NCBI RefSeq assembly: GCF_001083805.1
Contig: NZ_JXSK01000001.1
Location: 868,001-932,000, forward strand
Direction: 5' to 3'
DNA: 64,000 bases
Source: Photorhabdus luminescens subsp. luminescens
GTDB taxonomy: Bacteria; Pseudomonadota; Gammaproteobacteria; Enterobacterales; Enterobacteriaceae
Of this stretch, positions 17,203 through 60,785 are shown in pieces (position 1 is the first letter of the stretch; the number at the start of each line of letters is the position of its first letter). Below the pieces are notes generated by a model. The model searched no databases. It was given only the letters and a program-made list of their open reading frames with translations, and was not told where the DNA came from. Both the position numbers and the translations under genes were made by a program.

Positions 17203-17742
17203 CCAAGTTAATCCCAGTCCGATCGCTAATATGAATTATATCATGACTTGTTTTTATACCCTATGGATTTCAAGATTCTTTACTTACTATTCCTAACTTC
17301 TCCGTGTAAACCAGTCTTCCTTATTCTATATCAAACATTGTAGTCATTATAACTCCTGTAATTTATTAAAGCACTATTTTCTACCTATCATACTTTATTT
17401 CGGAACCAGTTATTTTTTCTTCTCAATTATTGATAACCTGATCAAGTTGGGATTAGTTCATAAATACCCGGCCTTTTTACTTGTATAAATAACTTTCCAA
17501 AATGGTGCTACACCTTATCTACCAACAACCCTATTTATAACAATGAGTTGAATAAAACCATGTGTAGCGGAATTATGAAACCTTATTTATACCCCCAATG
17601 CCGGGAAGATCGAAAACCCTAGAACAGGGTTCGACAAAACGGCAATATATTTACCTCGAAAGCATTGAACAAAAGATATTAACTACCAAATGTTGGGGAC
17701 TAAACAGATATAAAAAACCACCCGAAGGTGGCTATTGTCGTC
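17203..17742. repeat. Intergenic DNA with degenerate tRNA-linked repeat pieces
   Basis: Two pieces resemble the 172-bp tRNA-Ser-linked unit. Near 17468-17494 is CCGGCCTTTTTACTTGTATA, like the terminator tail of that unit. Near 17586-17643 is ATACCCCCAATGCCGGGAAG, followed by an AACCCTAGAACAGGGTTCGACAAAACGGC block. The rest shows no gene. The match is by eye, but the second block preserves the order and spacing of the unit. Confidence 0.6.
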
Positions 17743-19667: not shown

Positions 19668-19794
19668 TATACCCTTCATCTTTCAAGCTGCTGCTTTGTT
19701 GGCTGCTTTCACTCACCCCAGTCACATAGTTATCTATGCTCCTGGGGATTCGTTCACTTGCCGCCTCGCTGCAACTCGAAATCTATTAGGTATA
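19668..19794. repeat. ERIC element between luxB and luxE
   Basis: A 127-bp ERIC/IRU element with the family core CACTCACCCCAGTCACATAG and TGCTCCTGGGGATTCG, and partly complementary ends (TATACCC and GGTATA). It overlaps the last bases of luxB: the stop TAA (19786-19788) lies inside it. ERIC in the Photorhabdus lux operon has been described before. Confidence 0.95.
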
Positions 19795-22850: not shown

Positions 22851-24293
22851 TTATGGGACAAATACAAGGAACTTATCTTCTTCCAGGAATCGAGTCTGTT
22901 CTATTTCAACCGCAACATCCTTAGCCGTATAGTTAGATGGCCTTTCATGAGAAATATATGTCACTAATCGTTGCAACGGTCTCATTCCGTCATGAGATCC
23001 ACCAACTCGAAATATGTTATTCATTCCTGCTTCTACAATCCTTTCCGCACCTTTTAATGCTAACGCATCTCGATATTTAAATGATGACTCCCAAGGAAAA
23101 ATAGATATGGTTTGCGTCTTATTTTTTTGAACATAAGGCAATATTTGCTCAATATTATCGACGTGATGAAGGTACACACATCTGCCAAGTGGTTGATTAA
23201 ATTCCACACCTGCATTTGACTCAATAATCATCCAACGTTGATGAATATCCACCTCTACTTTTAATCCAGCAAACAAGCTTTCTTTTTGAACTAAAGAATA
23301 GGCCGCCTTTTCATCAAAATCTTTTTTGGCATTCGGTAATATATGCGCATATAGATTAAGTTTTTCTATCAACGCTAACTTAAATTCCTCATAATGATTT
23401 CCCATGTAATATATGTTTTGGGCAGAAAAACAAGCTCGCTGATCGTAAAAACAAACATCATGAGCCGCACCTGTCGCTGCGGACGTCAAATCAACAGGAT
23501 TATCGATAATGCAAAGACTCTTTTTAGAACCAAATTTAATCACATCAGCATAAGATGGCGCATGCTCTACCGCCCAATTAATCGCATCTGGCCCTCCCCA
23601 AGCGACAATAACATCCGCATGTCGCATAATTTCTTTTGCGAGTGATGTATCACCTTGGTGGGGCCAATATATAACAGATAAAGAGCGCGTTATCGGATGA
23701 TTAGGGTCTACATCAATAAAACTTAACGCTAATGCATTAGCGGTAAAAGGATCGGTTGACGATGTTTTTATAATACACTGATTCTTAGTTAAAATTGCGC
23801 GTAATATAGACATGATCCCAGATAATGGAACATTACCTGCCAACAGATGTACAGATTTACCTTTCGGAAAAGCCCGAACATAACTTTCATCCTGAGGTAG
23901 CCATTCATCCATGATATGGCGAGAACCAAGTTCATTTTCTACAACATCATAAAGGCCGCCTTTAGAACATAAAATCATAGATATCCAATTGGCCTCTAGC
24001 TTAGCCATTTCTTCTGAATATCCCATATATTTTTTTAAGTCACGAATGTATGTCCTGCGTCTTGAGTATTCTTCATTTTTCCATCTTTGCCCTACCGTAT
24101 AGAGAAAATTGACAATGTTATGCAACCGTAATTCGTTATTTCCATTACAATCAATAATGTTTTTTACATGAGAGTCATTCAATATTGGCAGGTAAACACT
24201 ATTATCACCAAAATTAATGGATTGCACTAAATCATCACTTTCGGGAAAGATTTCAACCTGGCCGTTAATAATGAATGAAATTTTTTTAGTCAT
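22851..24293 (-). CDS. luxC: Acyl-CoA/fatty acid reductase LuxC
   Basis: A 480-residue reductase related to aldehyde dehydrogenases, which reduces the LuxE-delivered acyl group to the aldehyde with NADPH. The acyl-accepting Cys288 lies in [13 protein letters not shown], and the nucleotide-binding part includes [19 protein letters not shown] use the ATG at 24291-24293 ([15 protein letters not shown]), the published start; an ATG three codons upstream is possible. This is the first gene of the operon. The rest of the predicted order D, A, B, E follows on the same strand. Confidence 0.97.
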
Positions 24294-24470
24294 ATTTGCC
24301 ATCCATTTAATGGGGGTAATTTCAACTTAAGTTGCTGTTTAACTATCTTGCGAACTGGTCGTACCAACACTTGCTTCTTATATTTTTGTGTTATGACGAT
24401 GTAAATAACAAATATATAGAAAATCAGATTCTGACTACGTGGTTCCTGGCCTGTAACTTTCGTCATAATT

Positions 24471-25096: not shown

Positions 25097-26077
25097 TTAA
25101 CCTTTATACCGATATAAATCCCGCCACATCATGTTAGTCATTTGCTCAATATGATCAAAACGCCCTGCAATTTTTTCCAATACTTGTGGTGATAATGTGG
25201 CTTCAAATTTCAAAGCTAAAATAGATAAAACTTTCCAGTGATCAATCAATTCCGTACAACGTTCAATCAGAGAAGGCGCAATATCAGCTCTGATTAAAGA
25301 ATGTTTTAACAAATTCAAATTAGGTATCACATACAATACACTAATATGATCAAACAATCTTTTAGCCGCCCGGCACGCTTTTTCTTCTTCCTGCTGAAAC
25401 GCATTTAGACATAATTTGCTATAATTTTTCAACGCATCATAATATTCAGGCAAGGTATTAAATAATTCGGCCTGACAAGTCAATAATTCCCTTACCGGCA
25501 TAGTTTCTCGATCTCTTAGTGAATCAACAACATAAAAATTACCCATATGATCATAAGTTTCACTGGGCACTTTATCGAAAAGCGCTAAGTAAAATTGCTT
25601 GGATGACATCCATGCCTCACAAGCATAGGATTCCCGATCAACCACCAAAGAATCGAAAATACGCACTTGTGAATAATCATCTGTAATAGCGGTGATCAGC
25701 ACAGCATGTAGATATTCCGGTTTATTGGCATAAGCCTCAGAATAAGATAAATATGCGGAATTAACCCAAGCAATAACACCTCTCTTTTGACATAATAATT
25801 CATATAACTGACGACGCCAATGTGCGTAATCTATTGGCAGCGAAGCTATATTCGCGCCCAAAGTCGTCGCGCCAGTTAATCCAACAGTTTCAACCGAGAA
25901 AATATATTCAGGTATATTTAATGCATCATACCCACTGCGAAATAAATAGCCATTGCCAGCTTCAAAGATCTCTGCCTCAAAGATCTCTTTACCCTGTAGA
26001 TTAAGTAATTTTGTCAGACTACCGGTAAAACAATTGATGGCGACATTTATTTGTGATTTATCCGTCACATTTTCCAT
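25097..26077 (-). CDS. BtrH-like papain-fold acyltransferase
   Basis: A 326-residue protein resembling the BtrH family, whose founding member moves an acyl group from a carrier protein onto an aminoglycoside in butirosin biosynthesis. The N-terminal part has a papain-like triad: Cys near 17 in AINCFTGSLTKLL, His near 132 in EYLHAVLITAI and Asp near 148 in VRIFDSL. The C-terminal half is helical and of the DUF4872 type. It is the last gene of the eight-gene cluster, about 75 bp after the amino acid ligase. I infer that it offloads the finished chain from the ACP onto an unknown acceptor. Family call is from motif layout and context, moderate confidence. Confidence 0.6.
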   Translation of the reverse strand: MENVTDKSQINVAINCFTGSLTKLLNLQGKEIFEAEIFEAGNGYLFRSGYDALNIPEYIFSVETVGLTGATTLGANIASLPIDYAHWRRQLYELLCQKRGVIAWVNSAYLSYSEAYANKPEYLHAVLITAITDDYSQVRIFDSLVVDRESYACEAWMSSKQFYLALFDKVPSETYDHMGNFYVVDSLRDRETMPVRELLTCQAELFNTLPEYYDALKNYSKLCLNAFQQEEEKACRAAKRLFDHISVLYVIPNLNLLKHSLIRADIAPSLIERCTELIDHWKVLSILALKFEATLSPQVLEKIAGRFDHIEQMTNMMWRDLYRYKG

Positions 26078-26152
26078 AAGTATTTTACCACCTCGATATA
26101 ATGGACTGATTTATGAATAGCAGATCAGATATGTTACTCCCCGCAATCACTG

Positions 26153-27028
26153 TTATTGTTCCTTTAATATTATTGCCACCGCTTGTGCTATATTTTCGAT
26201 AAGTAAATCAGGTTCATAATTCAAAGTATGGGCTAACAGCACTAAAAGTAATCTTTCCATCCCAAAAGCAACACAAGCAGAATGCATAGGGCGATCACTA
26301 GCACGACTGGTAATATTGAAGTTTGTGGTAAATAAATCTCGGTGTAAATTTCGTGAACCAACGCTAACGTTATATTTATCAAACCAGGGAATAAGTACTT
26401 CGCACTTGACGCCCATTGATAATTGCACTTTACGAGTCACTTTAGAATGTTCCCCATAAAATACATCACTGGCTTTTTCTACCGAAAGAGCAGGAAACAG
26501 TAAGCGTAAGAATTTAACCGCTTGCCCAAATATCATTTCACAATGCGTTTCTACTTTTTCCTGTAGTCCCACCAATATTAATTCACGCATGGTAAAATTC
26601 CCCATACGGGTAGGCTCATCTTTAGCCGGTTCATATCGATGACACTGCCCCTTAGCCGTAAAATATTTCAGTTCCCAATCATTAATACTATCTGTTAAAT
26701 GAGCAAAGGTATGATAGCAAGTCGATGGACTCAGTACCCATGTATCCCCGCTATTTTCACTTATAACATCGTGAGCTAAATGGGGATAAACATGCAATGG
26801 ATTGCTAGGCAATTTGTCGAAGAAATTGATACGCTCTAACGTCGAGCGAGGTAATAATGTGGTACACGAATGTGAAGCAACAGATATTCCCTTACTTAAA
26901 ACTTGTAAAAGTGTTTCATCAAGAAACTCAGCAGCAGCATATAAACTGTCAGAAAACCGATACCCGACAAGGCCGTTCTGCGACTGCACAATTGATAGCA
27001 GCTTACGCTGTTGAAGTTCTTTTATCAT
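26153..27028 (-). CDS. Amino acid:[carrier protein] ligase, class II aaRS-like
   Basis: A 291-residue homologue of the truncated seryl-tRNA-synthetase-like enzymes that load an amino acid onto a carrier protein phosphopantetheine instead of tRNA. Motif 2 is KYFTAKGQCHRYEP to RMGNFTMREL, and motif 3 is CVAFGMERLLLVLL. Cys104 (PSTCYH), Glu149 (TMREL) and Cys252 (SACVAF) fit the zinc-binding triad, with 45- and 103-residue spacing as I recall for the Bradyrhizobium enzyme Bll0957. There is no tRNA-binding arm. Likely partner: the ACP at 31891-32139. Amino acid specificity (Gly or Ala in known members) cannot be read from sequence. Confidence 0.8.
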   Translation of the reverse strand: MIKELQQRKLLSIVQSQNGLVGYRFSDSLYAAAEFLDETLLQVLSKGISVASHSCTTLLPRSTLERINFFDKLPSNPLHVYPHLAHDVISENSGDTWVLSPSTCYHTFAHLTDSINDWELKYFTAKGQCHRYEPAKDEPTRMGNFTMRELILVGLQEKVETHCEMIFGQAVKFLRLLFPALSVEKASDVFYGEHSKVTRKVQLSMGVKCEVLIPWFDKYNVSVGSRNLHRDLFTTNFNITSRASDRPMHSACVAFGMERLLLVLLAHTLNYEPDLLIENIAQAVAIILKEQ

Positions 27029-27217
27029 ATTTTATCTTACCTTTGCTGATCGATAATGACATTATGCTGCCCAGTAGATAATCTCTGTTTTGCAATATAG
27101 AAAGGATATGTTTCTATATCATCAAATATCATCTCCAGACATTTTTCTAAGATGATAAAGAAACACATTTGATCCCAAAATCAATTAACTGACATTTTAA
27201 TCATGGCCCCACCAGGA

Positions 27218-28969
27218 TTATTCTTTCCATACGACGAACCCCTCAATATAAAGTTTGTCTAGTGAGGTTTTCAAAAATGTCTCTACTGCAATCTCTGGTG
27301 ACATGATAAGCGGCTGTCCCCTAACGTTAAATGACGTATTCACCAGACAGCCATAACCCGTTATCTTCTGTACCTCTTTCAATAATCGCCAAAAAGTTGC
27401 GTTAAAAGTACGTTCAACAAGCTGAATACGCGCCGTTCCATCAGCATGAACAATACCTGACACCGGCTGCATCATTTCTGGTTTTACTTTGGCGGTGCAA
27501 AGCATATATCGAGTCGGCATTAAATTACGTGTCTCAAAAATAGTGTCGCAATCCTCATCCAAAATTGCCGGGGCAAATGGTCGGAAAGCCTCACGGAATT
27601 TCACTGTGCTATTAATCCTATCCTTTATTCCTTCACCTGCCGGCAAAGCTAAAATCGAACGGTTGCCAAGCGCCCTTGGGCCAAATTCCATTCGATCATG
27701 GAACCAAGCAATAATTTTATCTTCTGCGATATCTTTAGCCGCAGAAACAAAATAATCATCATTCAGTCCCAAATAACGCCATTTCATTCCCGCATTGCCG
27801 CCATGTCGGAATAATACATTACGGACTTCATCAGTGGAGAAACGAGGGCCAAGATAAGGATTAAAGCAATGATCTGTACCATTGTGGTAGCCGCCAGCCA
27901 CAAAAAGCGCAGCGCCCAAAGCCGAACCATCATCACCCGATGCCGGTTGAACAAAGACGTTTTCCACACCATCAAGCTGGCAAAGGGCTTGGTTTGCTTT
28001 GCAGTTTAAGAACGATCCTCCAGCAAGGCAGAGTGATGTTTCACCGGTTTTTTGCAGCCAATAAGTCACTAACTGTTTCAGCAACAGGGTAAATTTCTCC
28101 TGTAATCCGGCAGCAAAATCTTGATGAACATCCAGTAAAGGGTCATCTTCACTTCTCGGCATCAAACCAAACATATCACTCAGTTGTGCTATTGCAGCGG
28201 GAAAACCATATTCCGCATTGTCAAATGCTTGCGATAACCAATTTATCTGTATCGTTCCGCTCTCTGCATCGAATTGAGCCAATTTATTGAAAATATCGCG
28301 ATATCGTTCAGGGTTACCATACGCGGCAAGTCCCATGACTTTATATTCATCACTATTAAATACAAAGCCAAGGAACCGGGTACAGATAGAATAAAATATG
28401 CCTAATGAAGAACTAATTGGCTGGCTGTACAATTTCTGGAATTGCTGATCTTTAGCAAGATAAACACTTAAGGATTCTATTTCACCCATACCGTCTGAAA
28501 TAATACACAATGCAGACGGGAAGCCGCTGGGATAAAAAGTTGATGCCGCATGAGCCAAATGGTGATCTACCCCCTGAAAACGTGATTCAATATTCTGCCA
28601 CCCCTCTGAAGCCAATGCATTAATCACCGTTTCTCCACTAAAAACCTCTTCAAACATTTTCTTATTCGACATGAAAAAACGGCGATAATTATCATAATTA
28701 AAGCCGTGGGCAATAATCTGTATATCATCTTGCGTAAGACCCGCTTCCGCCAAACAATAGTTAATAGCATTAGCAGGAAACCGCCCTGTTCCTTTTTCTC
28801 CGGTAAAGCGCTCTTCCGCAGCCGCCGCGACAATTTTTCCATCAATAATCACACAGGCCGCGCTATCGACTCCCTGACAAATACGCTCGTCTAATTTACC
28901 TATACCTGGGTAATTCTCCCGCATAAAATGTTGAGAATTAGGAAGGCCGCTGATACCTAATATAACCAT
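27218..28969 (-). CDS. NodU/TobZ-family carbamoyltransferase
   Basis: A 583-residue protein of the family that makes carbamoyl-adenylate from carbamoyl phosphate and ATP and transfers the carbamoyl group to a hydroxyl, as in TobZ, CmcH and NodU. The Kae1-like N-terminal domain contains GVDSAACVIIDGK, AAEERFTGEKG and the metal-binding VDHHLAHAASTFY. Downstream are CLAGGSFLNCKAN, FGPRALGNRSILALP and the C-terminal GCLVNTSFNVRGQPL. I use the ATG at 28967-28969 because GGAGGTG precedes it by 6 bases. The final metabolite of this cluster probably carries a carbamate. Confidence 0.88.
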   Translation of the reverse strand: MVILGISGLPNSQHFMRENYPGIGKLDERICQGVDSAACVIIDGKIVAAAAEERFTGEKGTGRFPANAINYCLAEAGLTQDDIQIIAHGFNYDNYRRFFMSNKKMFEEVFSGETVINALASEGWQNIESRFQGVDHHLAHAASTFYPSGFPSALCIISDGMGEIESLSVYLAKDQQFQKLYSQPISSSLGIFYSICTRFLGFVFNSDEYKVMGLAAYGNPERYRDIFNKLAQFDAESGTIQINWLSQAFDNAEYGFPAAIAQLSDMFGLMPRSEDDPLLDVHQDFAAGLQEKFTLLLKQLVTYWLQKTGETSLCLAGGSFLNCKANQALCQLDGVENVFVQPASGDDGSALGAALFVAGGYHNGTDHCFNPYLGPRFSTDEVRNVLFRHGGNAGMKWRYLGLNDDYFVSAAKDIAEDKIIAWFHDRMEFGPRALGNRSILALPAGEGIKDRINSTVKFREAFRPFAPAILDEDCDTIFETRNLMPTRYMLCTAKVKPEMMQPVSGIVHADGTARIQLVERTFNATFWRLLKEVQKITGYGCLVNTSFNVRGQPLIMSPEIAVETFLKTSLDKLYIEGFVVWKE

Positions 28970-29055
28970 TTTCTTCACCTCCAAATTGTTATTTTTCTTT
29001 CATAAAAATTAGACTATGCGCTTTATACTGATATCCCATTTTGCATTACGAGGAA

Positions 29056-30240
29056 TCAAGTCACCTTGCCAAATAAAGTAATGGCATTATTACCACCAAA
29101 ACCAAATGCATTATTTTGTATATATTTTAAATTATTTTTCATTTCCATTTTTCGAGTGATTAAATTAAATTGATATTCAAAATCCTCCGGCAAAATATTT
29201 GTTGGCGGCATAATTTGATCTCTCAAAGATAAGCAAGCACTAACTGCGCCAATCGCCCCCGCCGTCGCCATCATATGTCCGATAGTGCCTTTAATTGCTG
29301 AAACCGCCGAATTCGGGAAATACTCAGAGAATATCGCTGCTTCTACTGCATCATTAGCCTTTGTTCCAGTACCATGTGCATATATACCACCTATATCTCC
29401 AGCTTCCATTCCTGCCGAATCTAATAATTTTTTATGGCACTGAGTAACACTGTTAATATCAGGATTGGTCGGATGTAACGCATCATTATTACTGGCAGTA
29501 GCGATCAATTCAGCATAAGGCGATTGATATTCGCCAACGTGTTTTCTATTCTGCAATACCAAAAAAGCGGCGCCCTCGGATATCGTAATAAAACGCCTTA
29601 ATTTCGAAAATGGACGGCACTGTTCTGCGCCTAATGCATTAAGCATGTAAAAACCTGACCACACTTTTTTTGAAAAGGCATCTCCGCCTCCAATGACGGA
29701 TGTTGAGACAATTCCAGCATTCATCATGCGTAATGCTGTTTCAAGCGCAATATTTGCTGACGCACAAGTATTATGGATCGTCATGGAAGGCCCGAACGAA
29801 CCAATTGCACGAGCAACATTATCGGAAACTGCATGACTCGAATAGATATTCGAATGCCAATTTACCGGCCTACCTTCAACTAATTGATCAAGAATATCCG
29901 CCTCAGCCTCATTATTACCTACACACACTAAGGCATTACGCAATTCAGCACATCCTGGTTGTAATCCTGCATCCGCTATTGCTTGGAGTGCGGCATCAAC
30001 AGCATACAGAGAAGAATCAGGGACCTGTGCGCCTGTACATTTCGGCGCCCTGGCTTTTATATCCAGACGCCGCTCAGCCGAAATTCTTCCAGCAATAAAA
30101 TTTGGCTTCAAAGAAGAATAGATCGGTTCCAGCCGAGTAAAATTTGACTCGCCAGCACATAAATTTTGCCAATAACTTTCGACGTCTATACCAATTGGAG
30201 TAACGACGCCAAGACCTGTAACATATATTTTATCTAACAT
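29056..30240 (-). CDS. Beta-ketoacyl synthase (FabF/type II PKS KS-like)
   Basis: A 394-residue condensing enzyme with full catalytic set: Cys159 in IHNTCASANIALE, His289 in YAHGTGTKANDAVE, Lys317 and His322 in IKGTIGHMMATAG, and the C-terminal NNAFGFGGNNA. It should extend an acyl-ACP with malonyl-ACP. The gene overlaps the dehydratase gene by 11 bp (shared 30230-30240), so expression is coupled. It is not the housekeeping fabF, which sits beside acpP elsewhere. Its neighbours suggest it works as a heterodimer with the Cys-less partner encoded two genes upstream. Confidence 0.88.
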   Translation of the reverse strand: MLDKIYVTGLGVVTPIGIDVESYWQNLCAGESNFTRLEPIYSSLKPNFIAGRISAERRLDIKARAPKCTGAQVPDSSLYAVDAALQAIADAGLQPGCAELRNALVCVGNNEAEADILDQLVEGRPVNWHSNIYSSHAVSDNVARAIGSFGPSMTIHNTCASANIALETALRMMNAGIVSTSVIGGGDAFSKKVWSGFYMLNALGAEQCRPFSKLRRFITISEGAAFLVLQNRKHVGEYQSPYAELIATASNNDALHPTNPDINSVTQCHKKLLDSAGMEAGDIGGIYAHGTGTKANDAVEAAIFSEYFPNSAVSAIKGTIGHMMATAGAIGAVSACLSLRDQIMPPTNILPEDFEYQFNLITRKMEMKNNLKYIQNNAFGFGGNNAITLFGKVT

Positions 30241-30979
30241 CGTTCTCCTTCCTCTTAATTGATACTGCGTCAGTTATCCAAAGTAATTTTTCCCCTTCAC
30301 AATATGCCCTGGCATCCCAACACATTATTGAGCCAAATCGGGTTACTTTAGTCTCAATAAACACAGGCGAGTTAATATGTTCAATATCAGGACTGAAAGC
30401 CAATTCACCAAATTTAGCAAAAACATAATCGCCGGCTGTTGAAATACTCTGTTGCTGATGCTGCAAAATTAATGCTAAATTCCCCATTGCCTCGACAAGA
30501 ATAATCAAAGGGAAATAATGATATTTTTGCAAATAAACAGTTTCACCGCACAATGATTTCATATCCAGGCTGCAATTCGCTCTGTTTAATCCATCATTAA
30601 CATAGATTATTTTTGGTAAAAACCAAAACTCTGGTTCACGTAATGATGGTGATAATAAAGAAGATGGGTAAAAAATTTTTTTACTTTCACCTTTTACATC
30701 TTTACTAGAATAACTTAGAAGAAAAGAAAAACAGTGTTGTTCCGATACTATTGCAGAAATCTTATTTTCCTCCTGGCGATATTGGATATTTTCATCAGGA
30801 CGTATAAATTGATGAAAAATTAGATTTCTTAAATTGATAAAATCGGCAGATGTATCAGCTATCTCTTTACAAAAAGCGGCGACTGGCAAGATCCCTGGAA
30901 CAACAGGATTATCAGGAAAATGATATTTGAATATTTCATCTTGCGGTGAAAAAACATGGTTAATACGATTAATCATCAT
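30230..30979 (-). CDS. Double-hotdog FabA/FabZ-like dehydratase
   Basis: A 249-residue protein with HFPDNPVVPGILP at residues 20-32, the FabZ-type active-site loop with catalytic His20. A second hotdog half carries VEAMGNLALILQ, where Glu163 sits at the acidic catalytic position. This layout (His from one half, acid from the other) fits a double-hotdog 3-hydroxyacyl-ACP dehydratase. The gene overlaps both its neighbours by about 11 bp. It would remove water from the ketoreduced chain, giving an enoyl or polyene product, as no enoyl reductase is encoded nearby. Confidence 0.7.
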   Translation of the reverse strand: MMINRINHVFSPQDEIFKYHFPDNPVVPGILPVAAFCKEIADTSADFINLRNLIFHQFIRPDENIQYRQEENKISAIVSEQHCFSFLLSYSSKDVKGESKKIFYPSSLLSPSLREPEFWFLPKIIYVNDGLNRANCSLDMKSLCGETVYLQKYHYFPLIILVEAMGNLALILQHQQQSISTAGDYVFAKFGELAFSPDIEHINSPVFIETKVTRFGSIMCWDARAYCEGEKLLWITDAVSIKRKENDVR

Positions 30980-31829
30980 TGTGTATAACCCTTACGCCTG
31001 AAACATTCATGTTATCTATGACAATAAATACAACGGCATCGCCTTTTTCACTGTGCTTAATCGCCCCCATAAACTCATGAAACAGAAACGCACTGTTATA
31101 TTCTTGATATTCAATTTTATTATTATCTTTAACAACATGAATTAATTCGTCATTCTGATCCAACGTATTGTGTACAAATATCTTCGTATCCGGTGATAAA
31201 TCATCACACCATTTTTTTATCTCTTCCGCTGTTAATCCGAAGAAAAAATCTGCCGTAAACTGTTTTCCACTCAATAACGTTGTACACATCACACCAGAAG
31301 ATATTGACTTTTGATTACTGATTTTCTTTCGTATATCATCAAGCGCTTCTGTGCAATAAACATCACCGAAAAAGAGATAGCTGGCGCCTACTGATCTATT
31401 ATGCAGATTAAGCAATGCCTGCATGAATACTATTACTGGGGTTTTACTGCCTGCATTTAATGTACAGTTTCCTCCCGTCACCTTTTTGTCAATGTTAATA
31501 AAGGTTGAAGCTGAACTGGTAGTAGCATAAGGGAATTGTTGAGCAGATACCGTTTTATCATTGTTCATGACCTGCCGCTGAAAACGAAGCATCGCTTCAA
31601 GGTTACCGTATTCTGTCCCCACAATGACAGATTCATTTTCTCCATTTCTATCTTCTGCAATAAACTGATTCGCCAGATAGGTACAAACGCGGCTAAAATC
31701 ATCACGAAAACGATCACCTTTATTGCTTACAAATTCAGAAATATCAGCAGGAAGAGAAAATTCCCCCTTTTTCTCATTCCGAAATATATTCGGATAAATA
31801 GCTATATTTTCCACGTTAAAAGTCAACAT
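30969..31829 (-). CDS. Ketosynthase-like partner lacking the active-site Cys (CLF-like)
   Basis: A 286-residue thiolase-fold protein, shorter than a full KS. It contains SVIVGTEYGNLEAMLRFQRQ, the KS-type second-strand region, and NCTLNAGSKTPVIVFMQALL at the nucleophile elbow, where the catalytic Cys appears replaced by Ala or Gly. The C-terminal His-containing half is poorly conserved. Such partners occur as chain length factors in type II PKS and as the CLF-like ApeC-type subunit in aryl polyene clusters. It lies between the ACP and dehydratase genes. I infer that it pairs with the KS at 29056-30240 and sets chain length. Confidence 0.65.
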   Translation of the reverse strand: MLTFNVENIAIYPNIFRNEKKGEFSLPADISEFVSNKGDRFRDDFSRVCTYLANQFIAEDRNGENESVIVGTEYGNLEAMLRFQRQVMNNDKTVSAQQFPYATTSSASTFINIDKKVTGGNCTLNAGSKTPVIVFMQALLNLHNRSVGASYLFFGDVYCTEALDDIRKKISNQKSISSGVMCTTLLSGKQFTADFFFGLTAEEIKKWCDDLSPDTKIFVHNTLDQNDELIHVVKDNNKIEYQEYNSAFLFHEFMGAIKHSEKGDAVVFIVIDNMNVSGVRVIHNDD

Positions 31830-31890
31830 TTTCCCTCAACTTATTATTTGAAAAATAGAGAGTTTTCAATTATTGATTAAGTCAACCTGA

Positions 31891-32139
31891 TCATTGCAGG
31901 TTATTTTTTATTTCCTCCCATAACTCACCTACAGTTTGAATGCGGGCAAGCGCATCTTCAGAAATCTCTTTGCCAAAGGTTCGTTCAACTGACAAAATGA
32001 CATCAATTAACTTTAATGAGTCAATACCAAGATCACTCTTCAACAATTTATTCGAAGTTATTTTAAAATCGGAGTCTAACTCAGCAACATTCACCAAAAT
32101 ACTTGCTAATTCTTCATTAACCATATCAATATTATCCAT
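31891..32139 (-). CDS. Acyl carrier protein
   Basis: An 82-residue four-helix carrier protein. The phosphopantetheine serine is in LGIDSLKLIDV (about residue 40), followed by ERTFGKEISEDAL. I start at the ATG at 32137-32139 because GGGGA lies 6 bases upstream; the longer reading to 32181 runs toward the ERIC element. It is presumably the scaffold for the aminoacyl starter and growing chain. It differs from housekeeping AcpP in the surrounding acidic residues. A phosphopantetheinyl transferase is not encoded in the window. Confidence 0.93.
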   Translation of the reverse strand: MDNIDMVNEELASILVNVAELDSDFKITSNKLLKSDLGIDSLKLIDVILSVERTFGKEISEDALARIQTVGELWEEIKNNLQ

Positions 32140-32169
32140 ATTACATCCCCAATGATGTTTATTTAAATC

Positions 32170-32296
32170 TATACCCGTCATCTTTCAAGTTGCCTCTTTG
32201 TTGGCTGCACTCGCTCACCCTGGTCACATCGTTATCTATGCTCCCGGGGATTCACTCCCTTGCCGTCGCGATGCATCTTGAAATCCATAGGGTATA
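32170..32296. repeat. ERIC element inside the biosynthetic cluster
   Basis: A 127-bp ERIC copy with TATACCCGTCATCTTTCAAG at one end and GGGTATA at the other, directly upstream of the ACP gene. It separates the ketoreductase and the 74-codon gene from the rest of the cluster and could influence mRNA stability or processing. Confidence 0.93.
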
Positions 32297-32428
32297 ATGG
32301 TTTAAATCAAGTATATAAATTTCACCCGAATCACTTCCCCCATACATACATCGAAAAACACGCTCCGATTAACTGTTTGCAACAATTATGCCTACTGGGG
32401 TAGATTTTCATTTACCCAAGGAAATAAT
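32297..32428. other. Spacer with no gene seen
   Basis: Together with the ERIC element this forms a 290-bp break in the cluster between the 74-codon reading and the ACP. No coding potential recognised. Confidence 0.4.
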
Positions 32429-32653
32429 TTATAAACGATTTAAAAATAAAGATATCTGATAATGAGTTTTGGCCCCTACTCCAAATAACGTAACCAACCA
32501 TTGGAATAATAACCAATAACCTTTTCTCATTAAAGCGATTGACAACATTAGGCCAAGTGAAGAAATACATTTATCATAAATCCAACCTACTATCCCAGAT
32601 AATTGATGAAAACATGCTTGCAGATCACGATTTATGATATTGTTATTAACCAC
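32429..32653 (-). CDS. Small hydrophobic protein coupled to the ketoreductase gene
   Basis: A 74-residue reading starting at a GTG that overlaps the ketoreductase stop by 8 bp (GTGGTTAA), with GGGGGA just upstream, so translational coupling is likely. It has two hydrophobic stretches (SSLGLMLSIAL and YWLLFQWLVTLFGVGA). I do not recognise the family. It could be a genuine small membrane protein or the first part of a longer gene truncated by the ERIC region downstream. Confidence 0.45.
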   Translation of the reverse strand: MVNNNIINRDLQACFHQLSGIVGWIYDKCISSLGLMLSIALMRKGYWLLFQWLVTLFGVGAKTHYQISLFLNRL

Positions 32654-33338
32654 TTAATCCCCCATCAATGCAAAGAGATGTCCCTGTGATATAGGTTGAT
32701 GTACTCAACATCCCCACACAAAAATTGGCAATTTCATCAACATCCGCCATTCGTTTTAATGCGGTGCTTCTGGCGAATTCCATCTTTTTTTCTGGAGAAA
32801 TATGACGCAACATACCACCATCAACATATCCCGGCATTACAGCGTAAGCCCTAACATTAAAACGGCCGTAGTCATTAGAGATGTTTTTTACCAATGCATT
32901 CATGGCTGCTTTCGAACAAGAATAAGCGGTGGCGCCTGTCTCTCCACGCATACTTGCTGTAGAAGAAATAAATTGCATCACGCCATTACGATTCTTCATA
33001 AAATGCGGCAGCAAATATTTTGCTACTCTTGCTGCGCCAAACAAGTTGACATTAAAAACATCATGCCAACCCTCAATATCCTGAGCGTGCAACAGGCCAT
33101 CCAATGACATTGCCGGCGTATAGATAACCGCGTCAATACATTTCATCTTTTCAATTGCAATGTTAATGGCTTCTCTAACACTGTTATCCGACATAACATC
33201 TAAATAAATTTCTTCATTACGCGGTTTACGTGAAGTACCTAATACCTCATAGCCGCTGGCAACCGCATGCCGGCAAATTGCATTCCCAATTTCACTTGAT
33301 GAACCAATAATAAGTATCTTGCTGTTATATTTATGCAT
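32646..33338 (-). CDS. Short-chain dehydrogenase, FabG-like ketoreductase
   Basis: A 230-residue Rossmann-fold reductase. The NADPH-binding GSSSEIG motif lies at residues 12-18, and the catalytic Ser-Tyr-Lys is in FISSTASMRGETGATAYSCS and KAAMNALVKN. The C-terminal DGGLSG is typical of FabG. It should reduce the beta-keto group after each condensation in the adjacent pathway. It is the first gene of the cluster. Its start lies near AATGC-rich DNA, about 760 bp upstream of which dauA begins on the other strand. Confidence 0.88.
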   Translation of the reverse strand: MHKYNSKILIIGSSSEIGNAICRHAVASGYEVLGTSRKPRNEEIYLDVMSDNSVREAINIAIEKMKCIDAVIYTPAMSLDGLLHAQDIEGWHDVFNVNLFGAARVAKYLLPHFMKNRNGVMQFISSTASMRGETGATAYSCSKAAMNALVKNISNDYGRFNVRAYAVMPGYVDGGMLRHISPEKKMEFARSTALKRMADVDEIANFCVGMLSTSTYITGTSLCIDGGLSG

Positions 33339-34097
33339 TTAAACATTCCTACCTTATCTAAAAATTATTTTCCAACAGTAACCCCTACTTTAAATAAAGC
33401 ATTCAGAATAAATATCATCTAAACAAGAAAACATTTTTAACTTATATATTTTAAACTTACATACTTTCAACGCATATATTTCTAACTTACCTATTTTCAA
33501 CTCATTTAATCCATCTAATTCTATGAGTCACTCTAAATAATAGGGTGAGTTCTTATATCTGTCAAATTATTAATCTAATATTTAAGAGATATCAAAGCAT
33601 TGGTTAAATTACATCCAAAAATTAAATGAAAACCATCATACGTAAAAATATCCAAGATAGCTAATTTAACCCGGTCATAATCAATACATGTGGTGAATGC
33701 ATAATTAATTATTTAATTTTCTAACAATAACAATTAAAAATTGTAATCAATCCTGTTAATTCATTATAAAAATAAAACATTATAATTTTATAATTAATAG
33801 AGAAAACATATAGCTTCAAATTCAAAAATATTAATTAGATTCTCTATAAAGTGAGTTCAACAATACTCACCAATAAGAATAGATAGTTAATAGAAACCGA
33901 TTCCAGCATATTTTACAGCGATAAGAACACTATTCTCCCTTTTACTTTTCACTTCCCTATCGTTAAGCTATTAACATTAAGTTTGATTTATAGCGCTATC
34001 GCTTTGAACTAAAAGCACTATTTTTGTAATTTGGTCTTGCAATTCGGCTGTAACAGCCTTATTGCTTTTTCCCTCTATATTTTTGGTTTATGCACAG
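33339..34097. other. Divergent intergenic region between the cluster and dauA
   Basis: About 760 bp of AT-rich DNA without a recognised gene. Near 33435-33510 a block with about four loose copies of a TTTTCAACT...TATAT-like unit occurs. This stretch must hold promoters for the ketoreductase-led operon and possibly for dauA. Sequence features of the island end (a tRNA 3' copy) were not found here. Confidence 0.4.
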
Positions 34098-35813
34098 ATG
34101 AAAACTCGTAGAATGAACGGCATACGGCCGTTTAGTGCTGTAATTGATGCTTGTTGGAAAGAAGCCTACTCTTTTGCTCGTTTAACTAAAGATATTATTG
34201 CCGGTATTACTGTCGGTATTATCGCCATTCCACTCGCTATGGCGCTGGCAATCGGGAGTGGCGTCGCGCCGCAATATGGGCTTTATACCGCCGCTATCGC
34301 CGGGATGGTAATCGCGATAACCGGCGGATCACGCTATAGTGTTTCCGGCCCTACCGCCGCTTTCGTTGTCATTCTTTATCCAGTTTCTCAACAATTTGGT
34401 CTGAGCGGTTTGCTCATTGCGACCTTAATGTCAGGCATTATTTTGCTGGTGATGGGATTAGCCCGCGTTGGTAAATTGATCGAGTATATTCCTCTACCCG
34501 TAACACTTGGTTTTACTTCTGGGATCGCAATAACTATTGCAACCATGCAAGTAAAAGATTTTTTTGGCCTACAATTGGAACATATGCCAGAGAATTATAT
34601 CAATAAAGTTGCAGAGCTATTTCATGCACTGCCGACACTGCATTTGAGTGATACGCTGATTGGCCTAACGACGCTTGCCATTCTGATTTATTGGCCCAAG
34701 CTTGGACTGAAATTACCCGGGCATCTTCCCGCTCTCATTGCAGGAACTGCTGTGATGGGGATCATGAATTTATTCGATCAACATGTTGCTACCATTGGCT
34801 CTGAATTCAGTTATATATTGAACGACGGTACCCAAGGGCAAGGCATTCCCCCCATCCTGCCGCAATTTGTTTTACCGTGGCATTTACCCGATACGGGTTT
34901 TCATCAGGTTGATATAAATTGGGCGACAGTTTCAGCCCTATTACCCGCCGCCTTTTCAATGGCAATGTTAGGCGCTATTGAATCACTGCTTTGTGCCGTA
35001 GTTTTGGATGGTATGACCGGTAAGAAACATCACTCAAACAGTGAATTGATTGGTCAAGGATTGGGAAATATTGTCGTGCCATTCTTCGGTGGCATTACGG
35101 CTACCGCCGCCATCGCCCGTTCAGCCGCCAATATTAGAGCCGGCGCAACATCACCGATTTCAGCTATTGTTCACTCTCTGCTCGTGTTATTAACTTTACT
35201 GGCATTGGCGCCCATGCTTTCCTATCTTCCTCTGGCCGCTATGTCCGCCTTGTTGCTTATGGTCGCCTGGAATATGAGCGAAATACATAAAGTTATCGAC
35301 CTAATGCGCCGTGCGCCAAAGGATGACATTATCGTGCTGGTGCTTTGTATGTCGCTCACCGTATTGTTTGATATGGTTATCGCCATTACGATTGGTATCG
35401 TATTAGCTTCACTGCTGTTTATGCGTCGAATAGCCAATATGACTCGCATCAGTCAATTGCCACAAACAAATATCGCTCAAGGTCTGCTGGTTGTCCGTAT
35501 CAATGGCCCGCTATTCTTTGCCGCCGCTGAGCGTATTTTCACGGAATTAAAACAAGAAAGCGCCAGTTATCAGACGATCCTGATGCAATGGGATGCCGTT
35601 CCTGTGCTGGATGCAGGCGGGATGCATGCTTTCCAACGCTTTATTGATGAAGTGGGTAAGGATAAATATATTGCTGTTTGTGATATTCCCTTTCAGCCGT
35701 TAAAAACACTGGCCCGAGCCAGAATCCAATTAGTCGAAAATCACCTTAGCTTCCATGCGACATTGCCACGAGCAATGGAAGAGTTGAATTTCAATAGCAA
35801 AATGGATAACTGA
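34098..35813 (+). CDS. dauA: C4-dicarboxylate transporter DauA (SLC26/SulP family)
   Basis: A 571-residue SulP-family transporter with an N-terminal 10-14-helix domain and a C-terminal STAS domain (about residues 430-571). E. coli DauA imports succinate at acidic pH. Blocks such as [40 protein letters not shown] and [20 protein letters not shown] are shared. The STAS region shows [12 protein letters not shown] and [12 protein letters not shown] take the ATG at 34098-34100; the next ATG, 34113, is also possible, and an upstream TTG reading adds a poor extension. In E. coli dauA is next to ychH and prs; here it stands about 10 kb away beside the island. Confidence 0.9.
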
Positions 35814-60658: not shown

Positions 60659-60785
60659 TATACTCGTTATCTTTCAAGCTGCCTCTTTGTTGGCTGCGCT
60701 CACTCACCCCAGTCACATCGTTATCTATGCTCCTGGGGATTCGCTCCCTTGCCGCCGCGCTGCAACTCGAAATCTATTAGGTATA
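60659..60785. repeat. ERIC element downstream of the tail-fibre-like gene
   Basis: A 127-bp ERIC copy with CACTCACCCCAGTCACATCG and TGCTCCTGGGGATTCG, directly next to the terminator, and 31 bp from the stop of the tail-fibre-like gene. Confidence 0.95.

What the first reader, a model, noticed from the sequence alone, without database searches (positions are those of the whole stretch)
25097..33338. Aminoacyl-ACP-linked, carbamoylated type II PKS/FAS-like cluster directly upstream of lux
Seen: eight minus-strand genes with overlaps or short gaps encode a ketoreductase, a small hydrophobic protein, ACP, a Cys-less KS partner, a double-hotdog dehydratase, an intact KS, a NodU/TobZ-type carbamoyltransferase, an amino acid:carrier-protein ligase and a BtrH-like acyltransferase. 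Known: KS plus Cys-less partner plus KR, DH and ACP without enoyl reductase is the core of highly reducing type II systems (aryl polyene, ishigamide-type), BtrH moves acyl groups off ACP, and aaRS-like ligases charge carrier proteins with amino acids. Inference: an amino acid loaded on ACP starts or joins a short unsaturated chain, which is carbamoylated and handed to an acceptor by the BtrH homologue. This combination does not match any pathway I know.
Basis: partly seen in the sequence, partly recalled or inferred. Interest (0 to 1): 0.9.

Follow-up and report, generated by a model that had tools for sequence, protein, structure and literature searches.

The report
Slimmed-down amino-acyl polyketide gene cluster
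Photorhabdus carries eight apparently working genes, beside its light-producing genes, for an uncharacterised small molecule that probably joins an amino acid to a short chain; they look like the remains of a larger cluster still seen in a Xenorhabdus and in a distant bacterium.

Summary
All eight evolve under purifying selection. The ninth, the "small hydrophobic protein", is most likely a scrap of a lost haem-oxygenase-like oxidase. A second scrap, between ligase and carbamoyltransferase, is the ligase's own lost carrier protein. Both are intact in fuller clusters in Xenorhabdus griffiniae (14 genes) and an unnamed gammaproteobacterium (16 genes, two ligase+carrier pairs). So the ancestor had two carriers; Photorhabdus has one. 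The BtrH-like model's 19 significant PDB matches are all CtaG, CcbD or AziU2-U3. Best reading: the ligase charges an amino acid, KS/partner/KR/DH make a short chain on ACP, BtrH forms the amide, the carbamoyltransferase caps a hydroxyl. Against this last step: the carbamoyltransferase gene stays open in three Photorhabdus whose locus lost KS, ligase and BtrH. The lux link looks positional. No product is known; my paper searches found no description.

The parts
25097..26077 (-). BtrH-like acyl/aminoacyl transferase (inferred amide-forming); C16, H124, D142 invariant in 8 sequences
   Evidence: BtrH_N E 3.9e-5, below cut-off; 19 PDB fold matches with E<=0.001, all CtaG, CcbD or AziU2-U3, TM 0.31-0.47; invariant columns; median omega 0.142
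26153..27028 (-). class-II aaRS-like amino acid:carrier-protein ligase; C104, E149, C252 kept (expected Zn ligands, recalled)
   Evidence: PDB 4h2w E 1.9e-17; NF005479 E 1.4e-31, below cut-off; median omega 0.131
27029..27217 (-). remnant of the ligase's own carrier protein (CP2); phosphopantetheine Ser region lost, frame broken
   Evidence: DNA alignment with CP2 of X. griffiniae L019:10447-10704 and with 5 other Photorhabdus loci; tblastn in the window alone is weak, E 7.2
27218..28984 (-). NodU/TobZ/GdmN-type O-carbamoyltransferase (start probably the ATG at codon 6)
   Evidence: Pfam, PDB 9s2t E 1.6e-91, first codon not a start in G207, median omega 0.083
29056..30240 (-). beta-ketoacyl synthase with Cys-His-His motifs
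   Evidence: Pfam, PDB 9s5h E 4.5e-52 and 6kxd E 1.5e-41, motifs, median omega 0.073
30230..30979 (-). FabA/FabZ-type hotdog dehydratase, His20 and Glu163 motifs (double hotdog not tested)
   Evidence: FabA 25.9 bits, motifs, median omega 0.206
30969..31829 (-). Cys-less short KS partner (CLF/CYF-like), 286 aa
   Evidence: no family hit; poor model (pLDDT 54.5) matches thiolase-fold enzymes at TM below 0.5; median omega 0.185
31891..32181 (-). acyl carrier protein (ACP1), homologous to the C-terminal domain of the oxidase-ACP fusion of X. griffiniae
   Evidence: PP-binding E 1.3e-8; 48% over 77 aa to L019:15239-16309; median omega 0.079
32167..32297 (.). 131-bp repeat with complementary ends, between ACP1 and the oxidase remnant
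   Evidence: two further near-full copies in the window; copies near cluster deletions in relatives
   Evidence: shortened, frameshifted or absent in the other 5 loci examined; segment test 0/400, 0/400, 0/400, 4/400 shuffles in four loci, 103/400 in the window and 304/400 in L020
32646..33338 (-). SDR-type beta-ketoacyl reductase, first gene of the run
   Evidence: Pfam, YSCSK motif, median omega 0.102

Best explanation
It is a real biosynthetic operon, the reduced descendant of a larger carrier-protein pathway. In the ancestral form (still seen in X. griffiniae and G373) two carriers work side by side. ACP1 carries a short chain made by KS, Cys-less partner, KR and DH from malonyl units. CP2 carries an amino acid loaded by the aaRS-like ligase. 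The BtrH-type transferase forms the amide that joins carrier-bound acyl and amine, the way CtaG is proposed to move an acyl group from one carrier to the amine held on another; oxidase, GSAM-like aminotransferase, ATP-grasp ligase and, in X. griffiniae, an NRPS then elaborate it. In Photorhabdus the oxidase and CP2 genes decayed and the later genes are not at the locus. The eight survivors stay under selection, so the most likely working form is a one-carrier version: the ligase charges ACP1 with a small amino acid, KS/KR/DH make a short hydroxylated or unsaturated chain on ACP1, BtrH releases the product as an amide, and the carbamoyltransferase caps a hydroxyl before or after release. Shown here: the genes, their conservation, selection, the CP2 remnant, the probable oxidase remnant and the two-carrier layout of the relatives. 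Inferred: every chemical step, the amino acid and the acceptor.
For: Seven of the eight genes recur in one cluster at 25-44% protein identity, in another order, in a distant gammaproteobacterium; its ACP was placed by position and alignment. All eight recur at 29-56% in X. griffiniae, ACP as a fused domain. Ligase next to a carrier in L019 and twice in L042 (CP2-Lig1, ACP1-Lig2). Ligase with carrier and BtrH+ATP-grasp, DUF1839 or ATP-grasp in Priestia koreensis, Caballeronia, Apilactobacillus and P. aryabhattai plasmids. BtrH model: 19 of 19 PDB matches with E<=0.001 are CtaG, CcbD or AziU2-U3; CtaG's proposed carrier-to-carrier transfer seen in passages of PMC6772006. Median omega 0.07-0.21 for all eight genes in 7 Photorhabdus, luxC 0.085. 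Remnants of CP2 and oxidase.
Against: No biochemical evidence. Known ligases of this family charge Gly/Ala on dedicated carriers (recalled), and this one lost its own, so charging of ACP1 is a guess; carriers elsewhere in the genome were not searched for. The BtrH model is mediocre (mean pLDDT 66.1; TM 0.31-0.47, rmsd 9-10) and has no PDB match by sequence (its X. griffiniae homologue neither). Of 9 annotated plasmid neighbourhoods of the ligase family only one has an annotated BtrH. The carbamoyltransferase persists in three genomes whose locus lacks KS, ligase and BtrH, so it may act elsewhere. Half of the 12 Photorhabdus genomes lack the KS, so the pathway is dispensable.
Confidence: 0.45

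Rival explanations
1. The amino acid is the starter unit: aminoacyl-ACP1 primes the KS, which adds one or more malonyl units to give an amino-beta-hydroxy or amino-enoyl chain that is carbamoylated and released by BtrH (the first reader's scheme, nearest to cispentacin logic with a different starter).
For: In G373 a second ligase lies directly behind ACP1 and in front of the KS partner and DH (L042:15849-18522); ACP1 is the only carrier left in the Photorhabdus cluster. AmcF-AmcG shows a type II KS pair doing a single elongation of a ligase-loaded starter (PMC10698177, sections read).
Against: By position and by tree (93/90 support, long-branch warning) the Photorhabdus ligase belongs with the CP2-linked Lig1, not the ACP1-linked Lig2; by BLAST it is about equally near both.
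Confidence: 0.3
2. The eight genes are a decaying remnant: selection acted until recently, but no complete product is now made, and only the carbamoyltransferase (and perhaps KR) has a lasting job.
For: CP2 and oxidase are remnants and exporter, ATP-grasp, aminotransferase and NRPS have no match in the window or five loci; six of 12 genomes lack the KS, and four of these keep the carbamoyltransferase at the locus, one of them broken.
Against: All eight genes are open with low omega across 7 species; ligase and BtrH, which lost their partner carrier, still have omega 0.13-0.14.
Confidence: 0.15
3. The carbamoyltransferase is not part of the pathway; it modifies something else (for example a sugar or another metabolite) and merely sits in the cluster. 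This can be true together with either scheme for the other seven genes.
For: Open in G203, G202 and G207, whose locus lacks KS, ligase and BtrH, with pairwise omega 0.09-0.13; G207 and its near relative G206 differ in cluster content, so at least two losses spared it. When the losses happened is not known.
Against: It is adjacent to KS in Photorhabdus, X. griffiniae and G373 alike, a long shared history; one of the four KS-less copies (G198) is broken, and G199 and G200 have no orthologue.
Confidence: 0.3

Closest known systems
Cispentacin (amc) / coronafacic-acid type II KS pair, PMC10698177
   Same: stand-alone KS with a partner of KS-like fold, ACP, adenylating enzyme that loads the starter, enoyl reductase borrowed from FAS (sections read)
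   Different: starter ligase there loads 2-oxoglutarate and no aaRS-like ligase is named; the KS here matches the AmcF model below its cut-off (163.4 vs 325 bits) and the partner no model; here KR, DH, BtrH and carbamoyltransferase
Highly reducing type II PKS (ishigamide, aryl polyenes)
   Same: KS, Cys-less partner, KR, DH, ACP without ER; 6kxd, second-best PDB match of the KS, is the ishigamide KS (recalled)
   Different: single ACP, short partner (286 aa), aminoacyl ligase, BtrH and carbamoyltransferase
Closthioamide (CtaG, CtaD, CtaI, two PCPs), PMC6772006
   Same: NRPS-independent, two carriers each with its own proposed loading enzyme, transferase proposed to join them (passages); like the ancestral form here
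   Different: no KS named in the passages seen; ATP-grasp and acetyl-CoA-synthetase-type loading instead of an aaRS-like ligase; Photorhabdus has one carrier
Amino acid--[acyl-carrier-protein] ligases (3mey, 4h2w) with carrier and DUF1839
   Same: aaRS-like ligase, carrier, adjacent uncharacterised protein predicted to form an amide (PMC2922099 note in proof; Caballeronia order; that the predicted protein is DUF1839 is inferred)
   Different: no KS or carbamoyltransferase in the Caballeronia stretch; carrier intact there, decayed here
Butirosin BtrH/BtrI/BtrJ (recalled)
   Same: BtrH family transferase, carrier, ATP-grasp ligase (latter in Xenorhabdus and G373 only)
   Different: no aminoglycoside genes; KS chain building here

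Membership tests
Amino acid--[ACP] ligase (class II aaRS-like) | catalytic core homologous to 4h2w/3mey with Zn ligands Cys-Glu-Cys | tested here: met
   E 1.9e-17 over residues 96-268; C104, E149, C252 invariant in the eight ligases aligned; that these are the Zn ligands is recalled
Amino acid--[ACP] ligase (class II aaRS-like) | NCBIfam NF005479 above its cut-off | tested here: not met
   109.6 vs 357 bits
Amino acid--[ACP] ligase (class II aaRS-like) | dedicated carrier protein beside it | tested here: not met
   only a remnant (27029-27217) in six Photorhabdus loci; met in L019 and L042
Amino acid--[ACP] ligase (class II aaRS-like) | charges a carrier with an amino acid | not testable with these tools
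   needs assay
TobZ/NodU carbamoyltransferase | both Carbam_trans domains and His/Asp motifs | tested here: met
   both Pfam domains above cut-off; DHHLAHA, SDGMGE present (role of the motifs recalled)
BtrH family | BtrH_N domain above Pfam cut-off | tested here: not met
   24.3 vs 29.7 bits; X. griffiniae homologue 30.2
BtrH family | cysteine-protease-like fold with Cys/His/Asp | tested here: inconclusive
   model matches CtaG/CcbD/AziU2-U3 but pLDDT 66.1 and TM below 0.5; C16, H124, D142 invariant
Highly reducing type II PKS | intact KS plus Cys-less partner, KR, DH, ACP | tested here: inconclusive
   KS, KR, DH, ACP met; partner matches no model and its structure model is poor
Highly reducing type II PKS | iterative reduction giving a polyene | not testable with these tools
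   no product known
Cispentacin-type KS-CYF system | AmcF/AmcG/AmcH equivalogs | tested here: not met
   AmcF 163.4 bits vs cut-off 325; no AmcG- or AmcH-named hit shown for the cluster proteins (that such models exist was not checked)
Closthioamide-like two-carrier assembly | two carriers with separate loading enzymes | tested here: not met
   one carrier in the Photorhabdus cluster; met in L042, partly in L019 (two carriers, one ligase)

The most novel reading that the evidence does not exclude
A previously undescribed class of assembly line in which an aaRS-derived ligase and a papain-fold transferase, not NRPS modules, amidate a type II KS-made chain, first with two dedicated carriers and, in Photorhabdus, collapsed onto a single ACP that serves both the elongating chain and the amino acid while the pathway stays functional.
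Probability: 0.35. Interest if true: 0.75.

Novelty: new variant of a known kind. Interest (0 to 1): 0.56.

Why it matters
If right, it links three rarely combined solutions (aaRS-like carrier ligase, cysteine-protease-fold amide synthase, reducing type II KS pair) in one compact operon, and gives a natural experiment in carrier-protein economy: the same core with two carriers (Xenorhabdus, G373) and with one (Photorhabdus). It also points to an unknown metabolite in insect-pathogenic symbionts and to a carbamoyltransferase that can outlive its cluster.

Tried and rejected
Small hydrophobic ORF as a gene: rejected, shortened, frameshifted or absent in the other five loci examined (P. akhurstii L025 not examined for this). 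BLASTP of that ORF against the oxidase gave nothing (E 34); the case rests on the segment test in relatives (0/400, 0/400, 0/400, 4/400 for L018, L021, L023, L022; 103/400 for the window and 304/400 for L020, so two of six without signal). CP2 remnant by tblastn: L023 5.6e-6, L018 4.5e-4, L083 7.6e-6; L022 0.82, window 7.2, no hit shown for L020 and L021, so there the call rests on the DNA alignment. Relocated oxidase: a profile over 12 Photorhabdus genomes matched only by its ACP part. MATE, ATP-grasp, aminotransferase, CCP and NRPS were sought only in the window and five loci, not in whole Photorhabdus genomes; ligase and BtrH are absent from the KS-less loci but were not sought in those whole genomes. 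Lux coupling: rejected as a functional link. Cispentacin membership: rejected. Wider distribution: partner profile 2 of 398 Pseudomonadota, both already known; BtrH profile 2 of 398, the same two, and 1 of 2 in G373's order; ligase profile 7 of 369 class genomes, own included; of the six others I looked at the context of four, and only G373 has the cluster (G414, G530, G467 do not; G278 and G410 not looked at); CCP profile 1 of 274, G373 itself; ligase in 3 of 198 genomes of the family sample, own included. The genome-contig scan used two patterns from the N-terminal quarter and found 7 loci, all Photorhabdus or Xenorhabdus, so rarer relatives may be missed. Plasmids: no BtrH match at 1e-5, no KS match at the strict 1e-40. 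KS-partner model poor (pLDDT 54.5). Ligase tree has long-branch warnings. DUF1839-BtrH homology: alignment suggestive only. Continuation of the G373 contig (L048) was fetched but not analysed.
Full report
Where and what. The window lies in a 5.46-Mb genome that by its lux genes and the nearest named loci is a Photorhabdus (LuxC model 898 bits, cut-off 750; named relatives). Between luxC (22851-24302) and a SulP transporter (34062-35813) sit eight intact minus-strand genes: BtrH-like, ligase, carbamoyltransferase, KS, dehydratase, KS partner, ACP, KR. KS-DH and DH-partner overlap by 11 bp, other gaps are 61-189 bp, and 464 bp separate ACP from KR. A promoter-like match (11 of 12) lies 199-227 bp before the KR start, but such matches were fewer in the region (30) than in shuffles (mean 39.8), so it is weak.

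Family evidence. The ligase matches the solved amino acid--[ACP] ligase 4h2w (1.9e-17). The carbamoyltransferase matches a decarbamoylnovobiocin carbamoyltransferase (1.6e-91), GdmN and TobZ. The KS keeps CASA, HGTGT and GH motifs and matches many KS structures. The 286-aa partner has no family hit; a poor model (pLDDT 54.5) resembles thiolase-fold enzymes, among them AntDE, at TM 0.30-0.45 in the rows shown. The BtrH-like protein scores below Pfam's cut-off, but its model (pLDDT 66.1) has 19 PDB matches with E<=0.001, all CtaG, CcbD or AziU2-U3, at TM 0.31-0.47. CtaG and CcbD are recalled as carrier-dependent amide formers and AziU2-U3 as an aziridine-forming pair.

Fuller relatives. X. griffiniae VH1 (contig NZ_JADEUF010000083.1, L019/L028) has KR, an oxidase-ACP fusion, partner, DH, KS, carbamoyltransferase, a second carrier CP2, ligase, MATE exporter, BtrH, ATP-grasp, class-III aminotransferase (GSAM-like, 436.8 bits, cut-off 398), a Cys-rich protein without family and an NRPS C-A-T-TE. 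CP2 has no Pfam hit; it is called a carrier by its DSL motif, size and alignment, and a weak NCBIfam ACP match. Identities to the window are 29-56%. G373, an unnamed 1.7-Mb gammaproteobacterium, has a 16-gene version with two ligase+carrier pairs. A second Xenorhabdus, G588, has a decayed copy; 2 of 30 Xenorhabdus genomes have the ligase.

Remnants. In the place of CP2, between carbamoyltransferase and ligase, six Photorhabdus loci have roughly 184-215 bp (from the coordinates) that align with CP2 DNA but carry stops and frame breaks, with the Ser region lost in five of six; L023 keeps the DSL letters without a start. In the place of the oxidase, between KR and ACP, the stretches I cut are 204-469 bp long; pieces match oxidase residues about 148-188 in four of six. 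The window's 74-aa ORF lies in this spacer and I take it for such a piece, although the window's own match is no better than shuffles. So the Photorhabdus ancestor very likely had both genes.

Still working. Across seven Photorhabdus (window, L018, L020-L023, L025) all eight genes are open, with median pairwise omega 0.073 (KS) to 0.206 (DH); luxC 0.085, SulP 0.059 (L018's SulP is cut by the locus end). The ACP matches of the relatives begin at residue 4-9 and one carbamoyltransferase at residue 6, so the true starts are probably later than listed.

Loss in the genus. KS is present in 6 of 12 Photorhabdus genomes at 1e-60, luxC in 12 of 12. Of the six without KS, four keep the carbamoyltransferase in the same place (G203, G202, G207 open; G198 with an internal stop at codon 557); two of these (G203, G198) keep a full-length KR match, G202 a KR fragment, and G203 and G198 also KS fragments. 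G199's 10.2 kb upstream of luxC hold none of the genes, and G200's contig ends 2.1 kb upstream of luxC; in both genomes the best carbamoyltransferase match is 38%, against 86% or more in the ten others. G207 is near G206 (dS 0.25), which has the full set, so there was more than one loss. Pairwise omega among the G203, G202 and G198 copies is 0.088-0.093. When the KS was lost is not known, so this suggests rather than proves independent use.

A recurring module. I looked at 10 of 93 plasmid records with the ligase family, chosen for diversity; one (L059) carries no annotation. Of the nine others, one has an annotated BtrH (P. koreensis: ligase, BtrH, carrier, ATP-grasp), one DUF1839 (Caballeronia: carrier, acyl-CoA dehydrogenase, ligase, DUF1839), and three an ATP-grasp (P. 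koreensis; P. aryabhattai; Apilactobacillus, annotated ddl, Pfam ATP-grasp). A. vitis, Tistrella and the Streptomyces records show no annotated BtrH, though hypothetical proteins could hide one. PMC2922099 (note in proof) predicts that the conserved neighbour of this ligase family is the amide-forming partner.

Mechanism and limits. The two-carrier layout fits transfer between carriers as proposed for CtaG (PMC6772006, passages). For Photorhabdus I favour a one-carrier version, at 0.45. The amino acid, chain length, acceptor and even whether the carbamate sits on the chain are unknown.

Print. Ten paper searches were allowed and nine ran. PMC10698177 was read in three sections (Results part 1, reconstitution, distribution); PMC11566119, PMC9177418, PMC10318531 and PMC6772006 in passages; PMC2922099 in passages and one section; all other papers only as listings. 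None describes this cluster in what I saw. Subscription papers and supplements were not searched.

Noticed in passing
window 32167-32297, 19668-19794, 60659-60785, 17254-17276: 131-bp repeat with complementary ends (the last place holds only 23 bp of it, inverted); copies also lie near the missing cluster parts in relatives L080-L082, L084 and L085, hinting that it takes part in the repeated gene loss.
   Followed up: partly
L080, L081, L083: Carbamoyltransferase gene open in Photorhabdus genomes whose locus lost KS, ligase and BtrH.
   Followed up: partly
L019:4210-4746, L042:15343-15852: Cys-rich 169-178-aa protein, conserved between X. griffiniae and G373 (38%), no Pfam hit for either and no NCBIfam hit for the first.
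   Followed up: partly
L058, L062: Agrobacterium vitis and Tistrella plasmids: aaRS-like ligase, small hypothetical ORFs of about carrier size, diiron oxygenase and nitronate monooxygenase together, suggesting nitro chemistry on a carrier-bound amino acid.
   Followed up: no
L040/L041 (G588): Xenorhabdus with a decayed copy: no match for KR, oxidase-ACP, partner, DH or aminotransferase in 39.8 kb, KS match only partial, BtrH split into two ORFs.
   Followed up: partly
L042:8348-9229: 293-aa protein without Pfam or NCBIfam hit directly behind Lig1 in G373, in the slot where DUF1839 sits in Caballeronia; possibly a second transferase.
   Followed up: partly
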